This document shows positions 810 through 10,158 of a DNA stretch of 64,000 bases, in pieces. The notes beneath the pieces are model-generated. The model had not been told where the DNA came from. It made no database searches and saw nothing but the letters and a program-made list of their open reading frames with translations. Position numbers and translations under genes: made by a program. This DNA comes from Acidobacteriota bacterium. Lineage in GTDB: Bacteria; Acidobacteriota; Vicinamibacteria; Vicinamibacterales; CAVVIG01. The stretch's first letter is position 1. Every line of letters starts with the position of its first letter. Where the stretch lies: positions 1 to 64,000 of the forward strand of contig JAFDVO010000001.1 in the NCBI GenBank assembly GCA_018268955.1, given 5' to 3'.

Positions 810-2024
810 TTAGTTTAGGAAAGCACTCAGGCGAATCTTGCTGACGAGCTGACCCGCGACTCTGACCTCCGCAGCTGCAGTTCCGGTGCTGGACGCCGTA
901 TAGATGGTGTACGTCTTCTGGCCATTCCCCAGGATCGTGTACGCTCCGTTGGAGCTCACACCCTGACGGACGACGTTGTATCCGCTTTTCACCAAGTTGG
1001 CCTGGAGCTCGCGAGCCGATAAGTTCACAGCGAGATTCGCCGCCTGCGCGCCCTTGGCCGTGACATCGGCGATCTCGGTCATCGCACGCGCTTCGAGCCC
1101 CAATGTGCCCGTTGCCGCCAACCCGAGACCAAGCGCCGCGCCTGCGACACCACCCGTTGCAGTGATGGCGGCCCCGATTGCCACATCTCTCGACTGTTCG
1201 CCGAGCCATCGACTCGAGAGCGCTCCCGTCAGCCGTGCAAGATCAGCGAAAGTCGGATCGACGCTCGTCCGGCGATAGGTGCCGACGCCTTTACCGCCCG
1301 CATAGATGTAGCCGCCAAAGAGCTGAATGCCCGCACCAGGATCCCCCTGAAGGTACGCGAATCGCTGATCCGAAACGCTTTGGCAGCTGTAGCCTTCGAC
1401 GCAGATCTCGTAGGCCATCCCGGTCGGGTCCGCGTATTTCAGCGGGTTATTGCGCGCATAGGCATAGGCGTTCCAACTCTGAGGGTCCGTCACGTCGCCG
1501 TTCACATGGCCGGGCTCAACAGTCGTGAATCTCCCCGTTTGGCTGTTGAAGTATCGTGCGCCGAAATAGTCGAAGCCGGACTCGCGATCACGTTGCTGGC
1601 CCGCGAAGCTGCGACGGTCCGTCGGCGTGGAGCCGGTCTGTTCGATGCCGAAGGGCAGGTAGTCGAAGCGCGACACCTGACTCCCCTGGGCGTCGGTGAT
1701 CAGACGGACGGAGCCGACGGCATCGAGCGAGTAGTAGGTGATGACATCCGTCCCGGTGAACCCGGTCGGCGGGACGATCAGCGGCGGCTCGGCCGTGCCG
1801 GATGCCCAATACGGGCCGCCCGCGTCGGACAGCACCAGGTTACCGTCGACCTGCACTTCCAACGTTCCACCAGGATGATCGGGCGTGTCGGACGCCCACA
1901 TAGGCACGCCGGTGAGGTCGTGCTGTACCAGGTTTCCGTCGGCCTGCATTTCCAAGTAGCCATCTACCAGGAAGGTGTTCGTGGCCCACACGGGTTGGTG
2001 GTCCGTCTCCCTGTAGAGCACCAC
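810..2024 (-). CDS. Short lectin/RHS-core polymorphic toxin, probably 5'-truncated
   Basis: The 404 residues counted from a GTG hold three parts. Residues 1-80 carry B-lectin-type repeats (MQADGNLVQHD, VQVDGNLVLSD). Residues 95-205 are a typical RHS-associated core with DYLPFGIEQTG, FDYFGARYFNSQTGRF and NNPLKYADPTG. After the core comes a roughly 200-residue variable tip with a Gly/Ala-rich hydrophobic stretch and a polar end. The frame stays open upstream to a TGA at 2094-2096 and adds another lectin motif (QLADGNVVLY), so the GTG start is only a lower bound and the lectin domain really begins earlier. Normal RHS proteins have over 1000 residues of YD repeats before the core; these are missing. 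It is either a remnant or a compact lectin-delivered toxin. The tip matches no toxin family I can name. Confidence 0.7.
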   Translation of the reverse strand: MVLYRETDHQPVWATNTFLVDGYLEMQADGNLVQHDLTGVPMWASDTPDHPGGTLEVQVDGNLVLSDAGGPYWASGTAEPPLIVPPTGFTGTDVITYYSLDAVGSVRLITDAQGSQVSRFDYLPFGIEQTGSTPTDRRSFAGQQRDRESGFDYFGARYFNSQTGRFTTVEPGHVNGDVTDPQSWNAYAYARNNPLKYADPTGMAYEICVEGYSCQSVSDQRFAYLQGDPGAGIQLFGGYIYAGGKGVGTYRRTSVDPTFADLARLTGALSSRWLGEQSRDVAIGAAITATGGVAGAALGLGLAATGTLGLEARAMTEIADVTAKGAQAANLAVNLSARELQANLVKSGYNVVRQGVSSNGAYTILGNGQKTYTIYTASSTGTAAAEVRVAGQLVSKIRLSAFLN

Positions 2025-4933: not shown

Positions 4934-7171
4934 ATGGCGGACGTGCTCGCGCCCAGTGAAGCCGCACGGCTCACCGACTTCTCGAGGGCGTTCAAGGCCG
5001 CGGCACGCGCCGTGATCCTCTACCCCGCCGATCACCCGGCCATCACCACCACGCTCGGCCGCCTCGTCCAGCTGACGAACCCTCCGCGGCTCACCGCGCC
5101 GCTGACACTGCAGGTGTCGCCGCAGACGCTCTCGATCGCCGGCGCCAGCGTGGGGCGCCCCGATGGCGCGATCGCCGAGCTTGCGGCGATGCTGCACGCG
5201 CACGTGATCGGCGAGCTGACGATCCAGCCTGGCGGCGATGTGGCCGCGTGGCGGAGTTTCCTGCTGCTCGTCGGCCGCGCGCCGGAGGAAGTGCGCGCGG
5301 ACGGTGGCGTCAGCAGGCTGTGGAACGCGGGGGGTGGCCGTCACGTCCGCGTCAGGCAGGTCGATTACGGCGAAGTCCTCCGCGAGCACACGGGAGGCAC
5401 CGCCGCCACGTGGGAGCAGGTCCTCGCGAACTGTCTCACGGGGACCATCTTCGACATCACCGACGATCTACTGCGCGCGCTCGTGGACAGCTCAGCGAAC
5501 GGGGAGATGCTGCGGGATCTGTTCCGGCAACTCGACGAGTCGGCGGCTGCAGCCGACGGCACGCTCGGCGCACGGGCCTCGGCTCTCCTGCGCCTGCTGC
5601 AGGGCCTTGCAGATGCGGCGCACCTGCGCGCGCCTGAGCACGAGGACCGGATCCTGCGCGACCTTGCCGTCGCACTCGGCCACACGCCCCCGGATCTCCT
5701 GCTGGCGGTCCTCGCTGCCGCGCGCGAACGGCACGACGATGTCGCGTCGGCGATCACGCCGATCGTGGAGCGGATGCCGGACGGTACGGTTGCCAGCTTC
5801 GTCGCACAACACGCGGTCACGCCCGGTGCACCGCTCGACCGCGTCGCACAGGCATTCCAGTCGCTCGTCATCGACCCATCGCGGCGAGAGCGGCTCATCG
5901 GCATGGCCTACGACACCGCCATCGTCTCGGGCGCCGAGGGCGAGGCGTTCGAACAGCACTGGCAGGACGTGGTCAAGGCGCTGCTGCGTGACTACTCCGA
6001 CCAGCCGTTCGTGCCCGACGACTACGCGCGCGAGCTGACTGGCGTGACGAAGGAGGCGACCGACATCGAGCAGACCAGTGACGACCCTCCCGAACGGATG
6101 CGCGCGTGGCTCGCGACGGTCGCCACAGGCGAGCTTCGCCGCCTCGATCTCGCGCTGATCCTCGACCTGCTCCGCCTCGAAGCAGACCCGGCCCGCCGCG
6201 AGGCGCTGATGGCGCCCGTGACGGCGGTTGTGGACGATTTGCTGCTTGTCGGCGACTTCGACGCCGCAGAGACGATCGTGGCCCTGCTACAGAGCGATGC
6301 GGTGCATGCCACGGCTCCTGAGCGCCAGCGGGTGGCGCGCGCCACCCTGGACGCGTTGGCCACTTCCGCCACCACGCGTCACATCGCGTCGCACCTGGGC
6401 TCGCTGGACGAGGAGCAGCGTGGCCGTGTCCGGACGATCTGTGTATCGATTGGCGAGCGGCTCGTACCGCTGCTCGCCGAAGCGCTCTCGGTGGAGGAAC
6501 GACCGCGCACGCGCGAACGTCTTGCAGAGCTCCTCGTCGCATCGGGGGCGACCGGTCGCAGCGAGATCGAACGGCTGAAAGGCTCGCCGAATGCTGCGGT
6601 GCGCCGCACTGCCATCCAGCTGCTGCGTGCGCTCGGCGGCAGCGACGTGCTGCCCGACCTGGCCGAACTGCTCGGGGACAGCGAGGTCGGGGTGCAGCGC
6701 GATGCGGTCCGCGCGATCCTGCATCTCGGAAGCGACGAAGGATATCGGGTGCTCGAGCAGGCGCTCGAAGGCGGTACGCCGCAGTCACGCGAGGCAATCA
6801 TGCAGGCGCTGGCCTCACAACGGGACGAACGCGCAGCGCCGCTGCTCGTCTACATCCTCGAGCACGTCGACCACACCGGCCCGCTCGGGTGGGTCTACCA
6901 GCGCGCGCTGGACCTGCTCGGACAGGTGCGCGACCCGCAGGCAGTACCTGCGCTCGAGGCGGCCCTGCACCGCGGCGAGTGGTGGGCGCCGCGCCGGACG
7001 ACGGCGCTCCGAACCGCGGCCGCGTCAGCCCTTGGACGGATCGGCACGATCGAGGCGCTGCAGGTACTGACACGCGCGGCGCAGACCGGCTCGCGTGGCG
7101 TGCGCAGCGCGGCCCAGGCGCAGCTCGACGCAATCGCCGATGGCGTATCGCCCGGAGGGCGGCAGGCATGA
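4934..7171 (+). CDS. HEAT-repeat protein with N-terminal module shared with the HD-GYP neighbour
   Basis: A 745-residue soluble protein with no signal peptide. Residues about 15-145 form a domain whose landmarks (LYPADHP, then a beta-rich part, then VIGELTIQPGGDVAAWRSFLLLV) are repeated in the next gene. The middle is alpha-helical and Ala/Leu/Arg-rich. Residues about 545-735 contain HEAT-like repeats (AVRRTAIQLLRALGG, GVQRDAVRAILHLGS, VPALEAALHRGEWW, ALRTAAASALGRIGT). It overlaps the HD-GYP gene by an ATGA, so the two are probably made together. It is likely a scaffold or regulator in the same signalling unit; the precise role is unknown. Confidence 0.85.
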   Translation: MADVLAPSEAARLTDFSRAFKAAARAVILYPADHPAITTTLGRLVQLTNPPRLTAPLTLQVSPQTLSIAGASVGRPDGAIAELAAMLHAHVIGELTIQPGGDVAAWRSFLLLVGRAPEEVRADGGVSRLWNAGGGRHVRVRQVDYGEVLREHTGGTAATWEQVLANCLTGTIFDITDDLLRALVDSSANGEMLRDLFRQLDESAAAADGTLGARASALLRLLQGLADAAHLRAPEHEDRILRDLAVALGHTPPDLLLAVLAAARERHDDVASAITPIVERMPDGTVASFVAQHAVTPGAPLDRVAQAFQSLVIDPSRRERLIGMAYDTAIVSGAEGEAFEQHWQDVVKALLRDYSDQPFVPDDYARELTGVTKEATDIEQTSDDPPERMRAWLATVATGELRRLDLALILDLLRLEADPARREALMAPVTAVVDDLLLVGDFDAAETIVALLQSDAVHATAPERQRVARATLDALATSATTRHIASHLGSLDEEQRGRVRTICVSIGERLVPLLAEALSVEERPRTRERLAELLVASGATGRSEIERLKGSPNAAVRRTAIQLLRALGGSDVLPDLAELLGDSEVGVQRDAVRAILHLGSDEGYRVLEQALEGGTPQSREAIMQALASQRDERAAPLLVYILEHVDHTGPLGWVYQRALDLLGQVRDPQAVPALEAALHRGEWWAPRRTTALRTAAASALGRIGTIEALQVLTRAAQTGSRGVRSAAQAQLDAIADGVSPGGRQA

Positions 7172-8526
7172 CCACACGCCTGTCAGGCACGGCTGCCGAG
7201 GAACTGCTGCGACGGCTCAGCGCGTCGGTCCGAGCGGCGCAGCTCTACTCGGAGGGGCACCCGCTGGTTGCACGGAACCTGGATGCGCTGATGCGCGCGC
7301 TCGACGCGGTCCACGACGCGCTGCCCTCGATCGTGATCGGGTTCGTCAACGCCGAGGTGATCGTCGGCGAGGCGCCGCTCAGCGGCGTCAGCGGTCTCGA
7401 GCCGTTCATCCGCCGCCTTGGCGAGATCGGGATCGAGCGCATCACGCTGGACCGCGGTGTCGATGCCCAGGAGCTTGGCGCGCTCGTCCGGTTCATCGCC
7501 GAGGCTCCGGCAGACGCACGAAGCGCGGAGCAGTTCCCGGCCTTGCCGCACGCGCGCGTCGGGCGCGTCGCCGTGGCGGAGCGCGTGGATGGCACGGCTG
7601 CCGACATGACCACCTTCCGCGCCCTGTATTCGGACGCGGTCCGCTCCGCCGAGCAGGTGTGGGAGAGCACCGAACAGGTCGGCACGCCCGACCCGGACCT
7701 CACGCGCTCGGTCGTGGACGGGCTCGCGCAGGCCGTGGCGCGTAACCGGTCGGCGCTGATGGCGCTGACGGCGCTGCGTGAGTACGACAACTACACGTTC
7801 ACGCACATGGTGAACGTGTCGATCCTCACCATGGCGCAGGCGCGTGCCCTGGGCGTCGAGGGCCCGCTCCTGCGGGAGTTCGGCCTCGCCGCGTTGCTGC
7901 ACGACATCGGCAAGGTCCGCACCCCACGAGAGATCCTGCAGAAGGCCGACGTGCTGACCCCTGCCGAGTTCGAAGTGATGAAGCGCCACGTCATCGACGG
8001 CGCCGAGATCCTGCGCGCCACGCCGGACATCCCGTCGCTCGCCCCGATCGTGGCCTTCGAACATCACCTCCGCCTCGACGGGAGCGGCTATCCCGACGTT
8101 GTTCGTCCCACGCTGAACCTGGCGACGATGCTGTGCAGCATTGCTGACGTGTATGACGCGATGCGGTCACACCGTGCGTATCAGGCATCGTTCCCGACTG
8201 ACCGGATCCTTGCGGTGATGCAGCGCAACGACGGTCGGCAGTTCGACCAGCACCTCGTGCGGAGGTTCGCGCAGTTGGTCGGCGTCTACCCGGTCGGCAA
8301 CCTCGTGCGCCTCACGACCGACGAAGTCGCGGTCGTCGTCCACACGCACGCACCCGATCCTTTCCGTCCGCACGTGCGGGTGCTCGTGGATCGTCACGGC
8401 ACGCGACTGTCGACACCGAAGGACGTGCACCTCTGGGAACTCGCCGGCCAGGGCGACCTGGCGCCCGCGATCGCACGTCCGCTCGACGCCGACGAGATAG
8501 GCATCGATCCGCTCGCGCTGTTATAA
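7168..8526 (+). CDS. HD-GYP domain protein, probable cyclic-di-GMP phosphodiesterase
   Basis: A 452-residue protein starting at the ATG inside the ATGA overlap with the HEAT gene, with GGAGGG 9 bases upstream. Residues 1-130 are the shared N-terminal module (LYSEGHP, FIRRLGEIGIERITLDRG). Residues about 200-390 are an HD-GYP domain: FTHMVNVS, the metal-binding HD in LLHDIGK (about 244), HVIDGAEIL, EHHLRLDGSGYP with intact GYP near 306, and IADVYDAM. HD-GYP enzymes hydrolyse cyclic-di-GMP to GMP, so it is probably active. No membrane segment is seen. Input is presumably through the N-terminal module or the HEAT partner. Confidence 0.9.
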   Translation: MTTRLSGTAAEELLRRLSASVRAAQLYSEGHPLVARNLDALMRALDAVHDALPSIVIGFVNAEVIVGEAPLSGVSGLEPFIRRLGEIGIERITLDRGVDAQELGALVRFIAEAPADARSAEQFPALPHARVGRVAVAERVDGTAADMTTFRALYSDAVRSAEQVWESTEQVGTPDPDLTRSVVDGLAQAVARNRSALMALTALREYDNYTFTHMVNVSILTMAQARALGVEGPLLREFGLAALLHDIGKVRTPREILQKADVLTPAEFEVMKRHVIDGAEILRATPDIPSLAPIVAFEHHLRLDGSGYPDVVRPTLNLATMLCSIADVYDAMRSHRAYQASFPTDRILAVMQRNDGRQFDQHLVRRFAQLVGVYPVGNLVRLTTDEVAVVVHTHAPDPFRPHVRVLVDRHGTRLSTPKDVHLWELAGQGDLAPAIARPLDADEIGIDPLALL

Positions 8527-8532
8527 AGGGGC

Positions 8533-10158
8533 GTGACCAAGACCGTCCTCCGTCGTGTCCTCAGCGCCTGCGCTCTCGCCGCGGCGCTGTCGGTCGTGCT
8601 GCCGGCCGCCGAAGCCGCCCCGAAACTGGTCGTGCTGATCGTCATCGACCAGATGCGCGCCGACTACGTCGATCGCTTCCACGACGACTGGTCAGCCGGG
8701 CTGCGACGGCTGGTGGACGAGGGCGCGTGGTTCACCAACGTGAACTACCCCTACCTGGACACCGTCACGTGCGCCGGACACGCCACGGTGTCGACCGGCG
8801 CGTTCCCGCACACGCACGGCATCGAGGGCAACACGTGGTTCGATCGCACGCGGCCGCAGCCGGCAGTGATCCCATGCACCGACGACCAGCGCGCCCGCGT
8901 CGTGTCGTACGGCAAGGAGGCGGCGAGCCGCACGGGTCCCGCCAACCTGATGATTCCGTCACTGGCGGAGCAGATGCGCGGCAACGGGTCGAAGGTCGTC
9001 ACCCTTGCGCTGAAGGCGCGCAGCGCCATCATGCTCGCGGGGCACAGCGGCGATGCCGTGACCTGGATTTCTGAATCGCTCGACGGCTGGGAAACGTCGA
9101 CGTCGTTCGCCGCGCAGCCCGTGCCTGAAGTGAAGGCGTTCGTCGCGGCGAATCCGCTCGACGCGGACTTCGCCAAGACGTGGGATCGCCTGTTGCCCGT
9201 GTCGAAGTACACGGAGGCTGACGCAGGACTGGGCGAGGATCCGACGAAGGGGTGGACCTCCACCTTCCCGCACGTGCTGAACGGCGCGAACGGCCGTGTG
9301 GACACCAGCTACTACGACCAGTGGCAGCACAGCCCCTTCGCGGACGCCTACGTGGCCCGCATGGCGGGTGCCCTGGCCGAGTCCATGAAGCTCGGCACGG
9401 GCACGCACACCGATTTCCTCGGCGTCAGCTTCTCGAGCCCGGATCTGGTCGGCCACGCGTTCGGCCCGAACAGCCAGGAGATCCGGGACATGTACGCGCA
9501 CCTGGATCGGTCCATCGGCACGTTGCTCACCACGCTCGATCGCCTGGTCGGCCCTGGCCAGTACGTCGTCGCGCTCTCGGCTGACCACGGCGTCACCCCG
9601 ATCCCCGAGCAGCTGCGCAAGAGCGGCCGTGATGCCGGGCGCCTGAGCGGCAGCCGCATCCTGAACGCCGGCGAGAACACCGCGGTGCGCGCGATGGGCG
9701 AGGGGAAGTACCTGTCGCGACTCAACGGGATCGACATCTACTTCGAGCCCGGGATGTACGACAAGGCGAAGCGGCACAAGGCGCTGAAGGGGATCATTGG
9801 GGCGATGGCGAAGGAGCCAGGTGTCGCGCGCATCTTCACGGCGGACGAGCTCGCGAACGGCGCCACCTCGAAGGATCGCGAACTGCGCGCCGCAGCCCTG
9901 AGCTACGTGCCGGGTCGCAGCGGCGACCTGATCCTCTCGCCCAAGCCGGGATGGATGTTCAGCGCGGCGGGGACAACGCACGGCAGCGCCACCGCGGATG
10001 ACCAGCACGTGCCGATCCTGCTCTTCGGGTACGGCGTCAAGCCCGGGAAGTACACCACCGCGGCCACGCCGGCCGACGTGGCACCCACCCTCGCGACGCT
10101 CACCGGCACGGCTCTGCCGAACGCGGAAGGAAAAGCGCTGAAGGAGGCGCTCCGCTGA
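8533..10158 (+). CDS. PafA-like secreted alkaline phosphatase family protein
   Basis: A 541-residue exported enzyme starting at GTG, 6 bases after the HD-GYP stop. Residues 1-28 are a signal peptide ending near AEAA. Active-site landmarks of the PafA type are present: metal-binding Asp in VIDQMRADY, the Thr nucleophile (T79) in TCAGHATVSTG, Asn in EGNTWFD, the Lys/Arg pair in LALKARSAI, DLVGHAFGP and SADHGVTPIP. It should hydrolyse phosphate monoesters in the periplasm and scavenge phosphate. A Thr rather than Ser nucleophile separates it from PhoA; related nucleotide pyrophosphatases cannot be excluded. Confidence 0.88.
   Translation: MTKTVLRRVLSACALAAALSVVLPAAEAAPKLVVLIVIDQMRADYVDRFHDDWSAGLRRLVDEGAWFTNVNYPYLDTVTCAGHATVSTGAFPHTHGIEGNTWFDRTRPQPAVIPCTDDQRARVVSYGKEAASRTGPANLMIPSLAEQMRGNGSKVVTLALKARSAIMLAGHSGDAVTWISESLDGWETSTSFAAQPVPEVKAFVAANPLDADFAKTWDRLLPVSKYTEADAGLGEDPTKGWTSTFPHVLNGANGRVDTSYYDQWQHSPFADAYVARMAGALAESMKLGTGTHTDFLGVSFSSPDLVGHAFGPNSQEIRDMYAHLDRSIGTLLTTLDRLVGPGQYVVALSADHGVTPIPEQLRKSGRDAGRLSGSRILNAGENTAVRAMGEGKYLSRLNGIDIYFEPGMYDKAKRHKALKGIIGAMAKEPGVARIFTADELANGATSKDRELRAAALSYVPGRSGDLILSPKPGWMFSAAGTTHGSATADDQHVPILLFGYGVKPGKYTTAATPADVAPTLATLTGTALPNAEGKALKEALR

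What the first reader, a model, noticed from the sequence alone, without database searches (positions are those of the whole stretch)
4934..8526. HEAT protein and HD-GYP protein share an unnamed N-terminal module
LYPADHP...VIGELTIQPGGDVAAWRSFLLLV in one matches LYSEGHP...IGIERITLDRGVDAQELGALVRFI in the other, with the same spacing from the N-terminus. The genes overlap by 4 bases. The module may be a sensor or dimerisation domain allowing the two to pair and tune cyclic-di-GMP hydrolysis.
Basis: seen in the sequence. Interest (0 to 1): 0.52.

Follow-up and report, generated by a model that had tools for sequence, protein, structure and literature searches.

The report
Paired unnamed domain in c-di-GMP proteins
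Two neighbouring bacterial genes, one for an enzyme predicted to destroy a signalling molecule and one for a coiled scaffold protein, carry the same previously unnamed domain, and this matched pair recurs in distant groups of bacteria, which points to a two-part signalling machine that can be tested.

Summary
The HEAT protein (4934-7171) and the HD-GYP protein (7168-8526, 4-base ATGA overlap) begin with homologous ~140-residue domains. Sequence against sequence this is not significant (E 0.056), but ortholog profiles match with Prob 98.7, E 2.7e-16; control regions reach at most Prob 3.6. No Pfam or NCBIfam family covers the domain. AlphaFold2 gives a confident model of the HD-GYP copy (pLDDT 92) without a confident PDB match.

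The pair is not local. In loci fetched with an HD-GYP query, 89 of 90 domain-bearing HD-GYP frames with enough upstream DNA directly follow a HEAT partner (the domain detected in 72). The domain occurs in 107/297, 80/198, 68/101, 63/100 and 38/99 genomes of five phylum-level samples. It also occurs as two tandem copies in single GGDEF-AAA-HEAT proteins, and with PilZ.

Best reading: a pairing domain that joins a HEAT scaffold to a cyclic-dinucleotide enzyme, in trans (this window) or in cis. Shown: homology, near-obligate gene pairing, catalytic motifs. Inferred: physical A:B pairing and control of hydrolysis. Coevolution was uninformative, the tandem model only suggestive (pTM 0.70), and HEAT-domain proteins also occur alone.

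The parts
4934..7171 (+). HEAT-repeat partner protein (gene A), 745 aa
   Evidence: ORF; Pfam HEAT_2 77.3 bits (cut-off 27.7) and HEAT_PBS 42.5 bits (cut-off 20.9)
4943..5374 (+). N-terminal shared domain of A (about residues 4-147)
   Evidence: hhalign against the HD-GYP-side domain; no Pfam or NCBIfam family
5018..5038 (+). LYPADHP motif of A (residues 29-35)
   Evidence: read from the sequence; YxxxHP in 127 of 145 distinct partner domains
6566..7141 (+). HEAT repeats of A recognised by Pfam (about residues 545-736); residues 150-540 have no reported Pfam stretch
7168..7171 (+). ATGA overlap of A stop and B start
   Evidence: sequence; translations
7168..8526 (+). HD-GYP protein (gene B), 452 aa
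   Evidence: Pfam HD_5 69.9 bits (cut-off 27.2) and HD 54.0 bits (cut-off 22)
7192..7581 (+). N-terminal shared domain of B (about residues 9-138)
   Evidence: hhalign; AlphaFold2 model of residues 1-151, mean pLDDT 92.3, pTM 0.84
7243..7263 (+). LYSEGHP motif of B (residues 26-32), in the turn between the two N-terminal helices of the model
   Evidence: sequence; secondary structure H7-26, H32-49; Y27, H31, P32 nearly invariant in 120 rows
7795..8256 (+). HD-GYP catalytic domain of B, with THMVNV, HDIGK, EHH, GYP and D motifs
   Evidence: Pfam HD_5 217-363 and HD 210-332; key residues invariant in 8 diverse members

Best explanation
The shared N-terminal domain is a pairing domain. In this window a HEAT-repeat scaffold (A) and an HD-GYP cyclic-dinucleotide phosphodiesterase (B) are made from overlapping genes and join through their homologous N-terminal domains, most likely one A with one B. 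The HEAT solenoid then holds targets or regulators, and the A:B state controls where and when the HD-GYP domain hydrolyses c-di-GMP or a related dinucleotide. In other bacteria the same arrangement is built into one chain (GGDEF-AAA-domain-domain-HEAT). Shown here: homology of the two domains, near-obligate gene pairing in several phyla, conserved catalytic motifs, fusions to GGDEF, PilZ and HEAT. Inferred: direct A:B contact, stoichiometry, and the effect on hydrolysis.
For: Profile homology. Of 81 domain+HD-GYP frames in 80 loci of the same phylum, 79 have an adjacent upstream HEAT/domain partner (77 with the domain detected), its stop lying -25 to +195 nt from the start of the HD-GYP protein's domain. 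Of 90 such frames with at least 1.2 kb upstream in loci fetched by an HD-GYP query, 89 have one (72 with the domain detected). In the order, 62 of 120 genomes have both single-sequence matches, 2 only A, 6 only B, 50 neither, Fisher p 2e-24. Control: of 8 HD-GYP frames in the window's genome only the window's has the domain or a HEAT neighbour within about 1.5 kb. Tandem copies: 17 frames with exactly two domains; the 6 of these scanned match GGDEF, AAA_16 and HEAT_2, one of them with HEAT_2 below its cut-off. One branch (SH-aLRT 96) parts 58 non-HD-GYP plus 1 HD-GYP domain from 35 HD-GYP plus 3 other. In the Nitrospirae-centred sample 48 of 63 positive genomes hold an even number of domains (my count). 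Tandem-domain model pLDDT 88.0, pTM 0.70.
Against: No direct evidence of contact. Mutual information over 145 A-B pairs hardly exceeds within-clade shuffles: mean 0.4855 against at most 0.4780; top-20 score 0.2256 against at most 0.2252; the single best score lies below the shuffled mean. Of 100 non-HD-GYP domain frames, 23 had no paired HD-GYP frame, though several of these are cut or split genes. Single-domain GGDEF-AAA-HEAT proteins exist (L298, L299, L329). L183 has an HD-GYP frame without a partner found. pTM 0.70 is intermediate, and no coordinates or error matrix were returned. The AU test rejects a strict HD-GYP-domain clade (p 2.7e-5).
Confidence: 0.5

Rival explanations
1. The domain is a ligand sensor, perhaps for a nucleotide. 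Each protein carries its own copy and reads the same signal; the genes are neighbours because they belong to one pathway, not because the domains bind each other.
For: The Y...HP motif is nearly invariant and sits at a helix-turn-helix tip in the model, as a functional site might. The domain accompanies synthesis (GGDEF), breakdown (HD-GYP) and binding (PilZ, cNMP_binding) of nucleotides. Solo HEAT versions exist.
Against: It does not explain why HD-GYP copies almost never occur without a HEAT copy or why two copies are fused in tandem. Tandem copies read YPxxS in place of Y...HP (12 of 12 examined). No confident fold match to a sensor domain; this is inconclusive.
Confidence: 0.25
2. Each domain forms homodimers (A:A and B:B). 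The pair is an adaptor and an enzyme acting one after the other, joined by other surfaces or not at all.
For: HD-GYP enzymes are commonly dimeric (recalled, from no call). Solo HEAT versions could homodimerise. The A and B domains have separated into two lineages.
Against: The separation into two lineages kept side by side, and tandem fusions of two diverged copies, fit hetero-pairing at least as well.
Confidence: 0.15
3. The domain is a fixed N-terminal cap of an old HEAT protein family that was copied once onto HD-GYP; synteny and translational coupling, not function of the domain, hold the genes together.
For: HEAT repeats accompany the domain in most non-HD-GYP proteins seen.
Against: Pairing persists in several phyla and in at least two partner length classes (about 540 and 750 aa), more than linkage by descent alone is expected to keep.
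Confidence: 0.08
4. The resemblance is chance.
For: Pairwise BLASTP E is only 0.056.
Against: Profile E 2.7e-16 with clean rows; controls at most Prob 3.6.
Confidence: 0.01

Closest known systems
HD-GYP phosphodiesterases (Pfam HD_5 PF13487 and HD PF01966; RpfG class)
   Same: Gene B matches above the Pfam cut-offs and keeps the HD, HH and GYP motifs.
   Different: RpfG-type enzymes carry a receiver domain (recalled); here the N-terminus is an unnamed domain shared with the neighbouring HEAT protein.
HEAT / PBS-lyase-like repeat proteins (PF13646, PF03130)
   Same: The C-terminal part of A matches above the cut-offs.
   Different: A starts with the unnamed domain; residues 150-540 have no reported Pfam stretch. 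The NCBIfam lyase and degradation models match far below their cut-offs (NblB 32.4 of 300, CpcE 31.5 of 330).
SiaC-SiaD of Pseudomonas aeruginosa (PMC8457831; abstract and outline seen)
   Same: A c-di-GMP enzyme controlled by a dedicated partner protein.
   Different: SiaD is a diguanylate cyclase and SiaC binds its stalk; the abstract describes no homologous domain shared by both partners.
PapB-PapA (BLUF protein with an EAL protein) and H-NOX with DGC pairs (review PMC8846402; passages seen)
   Same: Two-protein regulation of a c-di-GMP enzyme by a partner.
   Different: The partners are known sensor proteins; the word HEAT does not occur in the main text of that review.

Membership tests
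HD-GYP phosphodiesterase | HD domain above the family cut-off | tested here: met
   HD_5 69.9 bits (cut-off 27.2), HD 54.0 bits (cut-off 22)
HD-GYP phosphodiesterase | Metal-binding and GYP motifs | tested here: met
   B has THMVNV, HDIGK, EHH and GYP; key positions are invariant in 8 diverse members; of 170 distinct domain-bearing HD-GYP frames HDxGK is in 163 and HH..GYP in 161, some frames being cut by contig ends
HD-GYP phosphodiesterase | Hydrolysis of c-di-GMP or cGAMP | not testable with these tools
   needs an enzyme assay
HEAT repeat protein | HEAT repeats above the cut-off | tested here: met
   HEAT_2 77.3 bits (cut-off 27.7), HEAT_PBS 42.5 bits (cut-off 20.9)
Any Pfam or NCBIfam family, for the N-terminal domain | A systematic match to a curated model | tested here: not met
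   120 domain sequences: 2 stray Pfam and 6 stray NCBIfam families, one member each, best E 0.002
GAF-like sensor fold, for the N-terminal domain | Structural match to solved GAF domains | tested here: inconclusive
   Foldseek best E 0.093, prob 0.15, TM 0.19, to a sigma-54 regulator domain; several GAF entries lower down; VIA-align rows cover mostly the helical hairpin 1-54
Partner-regulated c-di-GMP enzyme (as SiaC-SiaD) | Physical complex of enzyme and partner | not testable with these tools
   gene pairing only

The most novel reading that the evidence does not exclude
A cyclic-dinucleotide signalling chassis, so far undescribed in the library searched, that works on a rule of two: two copies of one unnamed alpha/beta domain must come together, in trans from neighbouring HEAT and HD-GYP genes or in cis in GGDEF-AAA(-kinase)-HEAT proteins, so that one kind of HEAT scaffold gathers synthesis, breakdown and reading (PilZ) of the messenger in Acidobacteriota, Desulfobacterota, Gemmatimonadota, Nitrospirota and Planctomycetota.
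Probability: 0.35. Interest if true: 0.78.

Novelty: new variant of a known kind. Interest (0 to 1): 0.64.

Why it matters
c-di-GMP enzymes are usually read through known sensor domains. Here a domain without a Pfam or NCBIfam entry sits at the start of a widespread set of HD-GYP enzymes and of their HEAT partners, and recurs in GGDEF and PilZ proteins. If the pairing reading is right, it names the missing regulatory subunit for these enzymes and gives a simple, directly testable rule (two domains, one scaffold, one catalytic or reader module) for organisms whose c-di-GMP networks are little studied. A relative in a named strain of the Geobacter group (Trichlorobacter thiogenes ATCC BAA-34, L170) makes bench tests possible.

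Tried and rejected
Chance similarity was considered and rejected. A second hit of the B domain in the window's own genome (C3, E 0.064) lies in what looks like an antisense frame of a polyprenyl-synthase-like gene (by eye) and was dropped.

No solved relative by profile: best E 0.014, to the designed protein Octarellin V.1 over 40 positions. Foldseek and VIA-align on both models gave nothing to trust; the beta part of the domain is barely tested there, so I do not claim a new fold. A heterodimer could not be modelled: the tool folds single chains and returned no coordinates or error matrix; I used the second job on a natural tandem-domain protein instead. An apparent 24,576-residue open frame in G605 proved to be a run of N.

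Literature: ten searches of the held open library listed no description of this domain or gene pair in titles and abstract openings; papers outside the library were not searched. Passages were read in PMC7159879, PMC13194489 and PMC8846402; abstract and outline in PMC8457831.

Rows dropped before counts: domain matches under about 95 residues; L101_19 from the profile sets; identical pairs collapsed, 167 to 145; tree rows thinned by identity to 97. Frames are stop-to-stop, not gene calls, so their lengths overstate the proteins. Loci L063-L152 were picked by me from matches to A, B or the domain, so one search is not a random sample; the loci were picked by an HD-GYP query, and some lie in the same genomes as the first set. 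Of the 100 domain+HD-GYP frames in that second set, 10 had under 1.2 kb upstream (2 of them paired) and are outside the 89 of 90.
Full report
What is in the window. Gene A, 4934-7171 (+), encodes 745 residues; gene B, 7168-8526 (+), encodes 452 residues from an ATG that overlaps A's stop as ATGA. Pfam finds HEAT repeats in the C-terminal part of A and HD_5/HD domains in B, and nothing in either N-terminus. B keeps the residues expected of an active HD-GYP domain; across eight diverse relatives the key positions are invariant, and in 170 distinct domain-bearing HD-GYP frames HDxGK is present in 163 and HH..GYP in 161.

The observation. BLASTP of residues 1-150 gives E 0.056, so the eye-match alone would not stand. 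Profiles settle it: with 53 and 61 rows hhalign gives Prob 99.4, E 1.5e-20; with 52 clean order-level rows on each side Prob 98.7, E 2.7e-16, while control regions of the same proteins stay at or below Prob 3.6. The shared domain spans about A 4-147 and B 1-138, some 140 residues. None of the Pfam or NCBIfam families matches more than one of 120 members, and no solved chain matches convincingly by profile (best E 0.014 to a designed protein).

Fold. AlphaFold2 on B 1-151 with 120 rows gives pLDDT 92.3 and pTM 0.84: two long helices with the LYSEGHP motif at their turn, a beta hairpin, a helix, a strand, a helix and a last strand. Foldseek against the PDB gives no match better than E 0.09; VIA-align rows cover mainly the helical hairpin. 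I take this as fold not identified, not as a new fold. A natural tandem copy pair (L294) folds with both copies showing a closely similar order of elements, pLDDT 88.0, pTM 0.70; that value hints at, but does not prove, a fixed arrangement of the two. The A domain of the window was not folded on its own.

The gene pair. In 120 genomes of the same order, the B domain is found in 68 and the A domain in 64: 62 have both, 2 only A, 6 only B, 50 neither (Fisher p 2e-24). The 20 loci that I chose for two copies each are four-gene arrays A-B-A-B, often beside a deoA-like gene as in the window. In 80 loci of the phylum, 79 of 81 domain+HD-GYP frames have an adjacent upstream partner, 77 with the domain detected; the exceptions are L101, which looks like an A/B deletion fusion, and L148, with a truncated partner. 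In 77 loci fetched by an HD-GYP query from titled genomes (Acidobacteria, Geobacter and Trichlorobacter, Gemmatimonadetes, Nitrospirae, Nitrospinota, Phycisphaerae and others), 89 of 90 such frames with room upstream have a partner, 72 with the domain detected. As a control, of the eight HD-GYP frames in the window's own genome only the window's has the domain or a HEAT neighbour within about 1.5 kb.

Spread and other contexts. The domain profile finds 107 of 297 genomes in the window's phylum sample, 80 of 198 around Trichlorobacter, 68 of 101 around a Gemmatimonadetes genome, 63 of 100 around a Nitrospirae genome and 38 of 99 around a Phycisphaerae genome. The modern phylum names that I use are inferred from those titles. 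In the Nitrospirae-centred sample 48 of the 63 positive genomes hold an even number of copies (my count). Seventeen frames carry exactly two copies in tandem (L144, L145; L293 twice, L294, L295; L305, L306; nine in L322-L328). Six of the seventeen were scanned and all six have GGDEF, AAA_16 and HEAT_2 matches, one of them a protein kinase domain as well; in that one (L322) HEAT_2 is below its cut-off. Three single-copy GGDEF-AAA_16-HEAT proteins (L298, L299, L329) and two domain-HEAT-cNMP_binding-PilZ proteins (L296, L300) were also seen. I fetched these because their tables or frame lengths looked unusual, so they show that such architectures exist, not how frequent they are.

History. On a tree of 97 domains the HD-GYP label needs 4 changes against 29.2 when shuffled. 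One branch (SH-aLRT 96) parts 58 non-HD-GYP plus one HD-GYP domain from 35 HD-GYP plus three others; of the four misfits L101 is the fusion and L117_7 is a frame cut by the contig end. The AU test rejects a strict clade (p 2.7e-5). The columns are few, so I read this only as two old lineages, one with HEAT and one with HD-GYP, that have mostly stayed apart while staying neighbours.

How it most likely works. Homologous domains in two proteins made from overlapping genes, kept together over great distances, and fused in tandem in other proteins, are best explained by a domain that pairs. The HEAT solenoid is then a dedicated scaffold or regulatory subunit of the HD-GYP enzyme. The link to c-di-GMP rests on the HD-GYP, GGDEF and PilZ contexts; the true dinucleotide is unknown. 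Against this: HEAT-domain proteins also occur alone (23 of 100 non-HD-GYP domain frames unpaired, some of them cut genes), single-copy GGDEF versions exist, covariation was uninformative, and there is no contact evidence. A sensor role, or homodimers, remain open; a sensor role and pairing could both be true.

Known or new. HD-GYP and HEAT are known families and both members pass their sequence tests. Partner-controlled c-di-GMP enzymes are known, for example SiaC-SiaD (PMC8457831, abstract and outline seen) and PapB-PapA and H-NOX pairs (PMC8846402, passages seen), but no shared domain of this kind is described in what I read. Ten searches of the held open library listed no account of this domain or pair; subscription papers were not covered. 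I therefore call it a new variant of a known kind.

Noticed in passing
L101 (G109:C18), frame L101_19: An A-type domain is joined to the C-terminal half of an HD-GYP domain, without the HDxGK part; it looks like a deletion between neighbouring A and B genes, or an assembly join.
   Followed up: partly
L063-L082: Twenty loci carry the pair twice in a row (A-B-A-B), often next to a deoA-like gene; the window and its nearest relatives have one pair at the same place.
   Followed up: partly
window 8533-10158: A secreted phosphatase-like gene (name by eye) starts 6 bases after B; similar genes lie in 26 of 148 scanned loci, so it may belong to the operon in close relatives.
   Followed up: partly
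L131 and L137: Solo domain-HEAT genes lie beside genes that look like Spo0J/ParA, bactofilin and DivIVA-like proteins (names by eye, not by a family search).
   Followed up: no
L134: A solo domain protein lies between pilin-like genes and a MoxR-like ATPase (names by eye).
   Followed up: no
L322:117-5678 (+): A frame with a protein kinase, a weak GGDEF match, AAA_16 and two copies of the domain; two further two-copy frames follow it in the same locus.
   Followed up: partly
L296 and L300: Domain-HEAT proteins end in cNMP_binding and PilZ domains, which would make them readers of cyclic nucleotides.
   Followed up: partly
window 810-2024 (-): A frame that looks like a fragment of an RHS-type repeat protein (by eye).
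   Followed up: no
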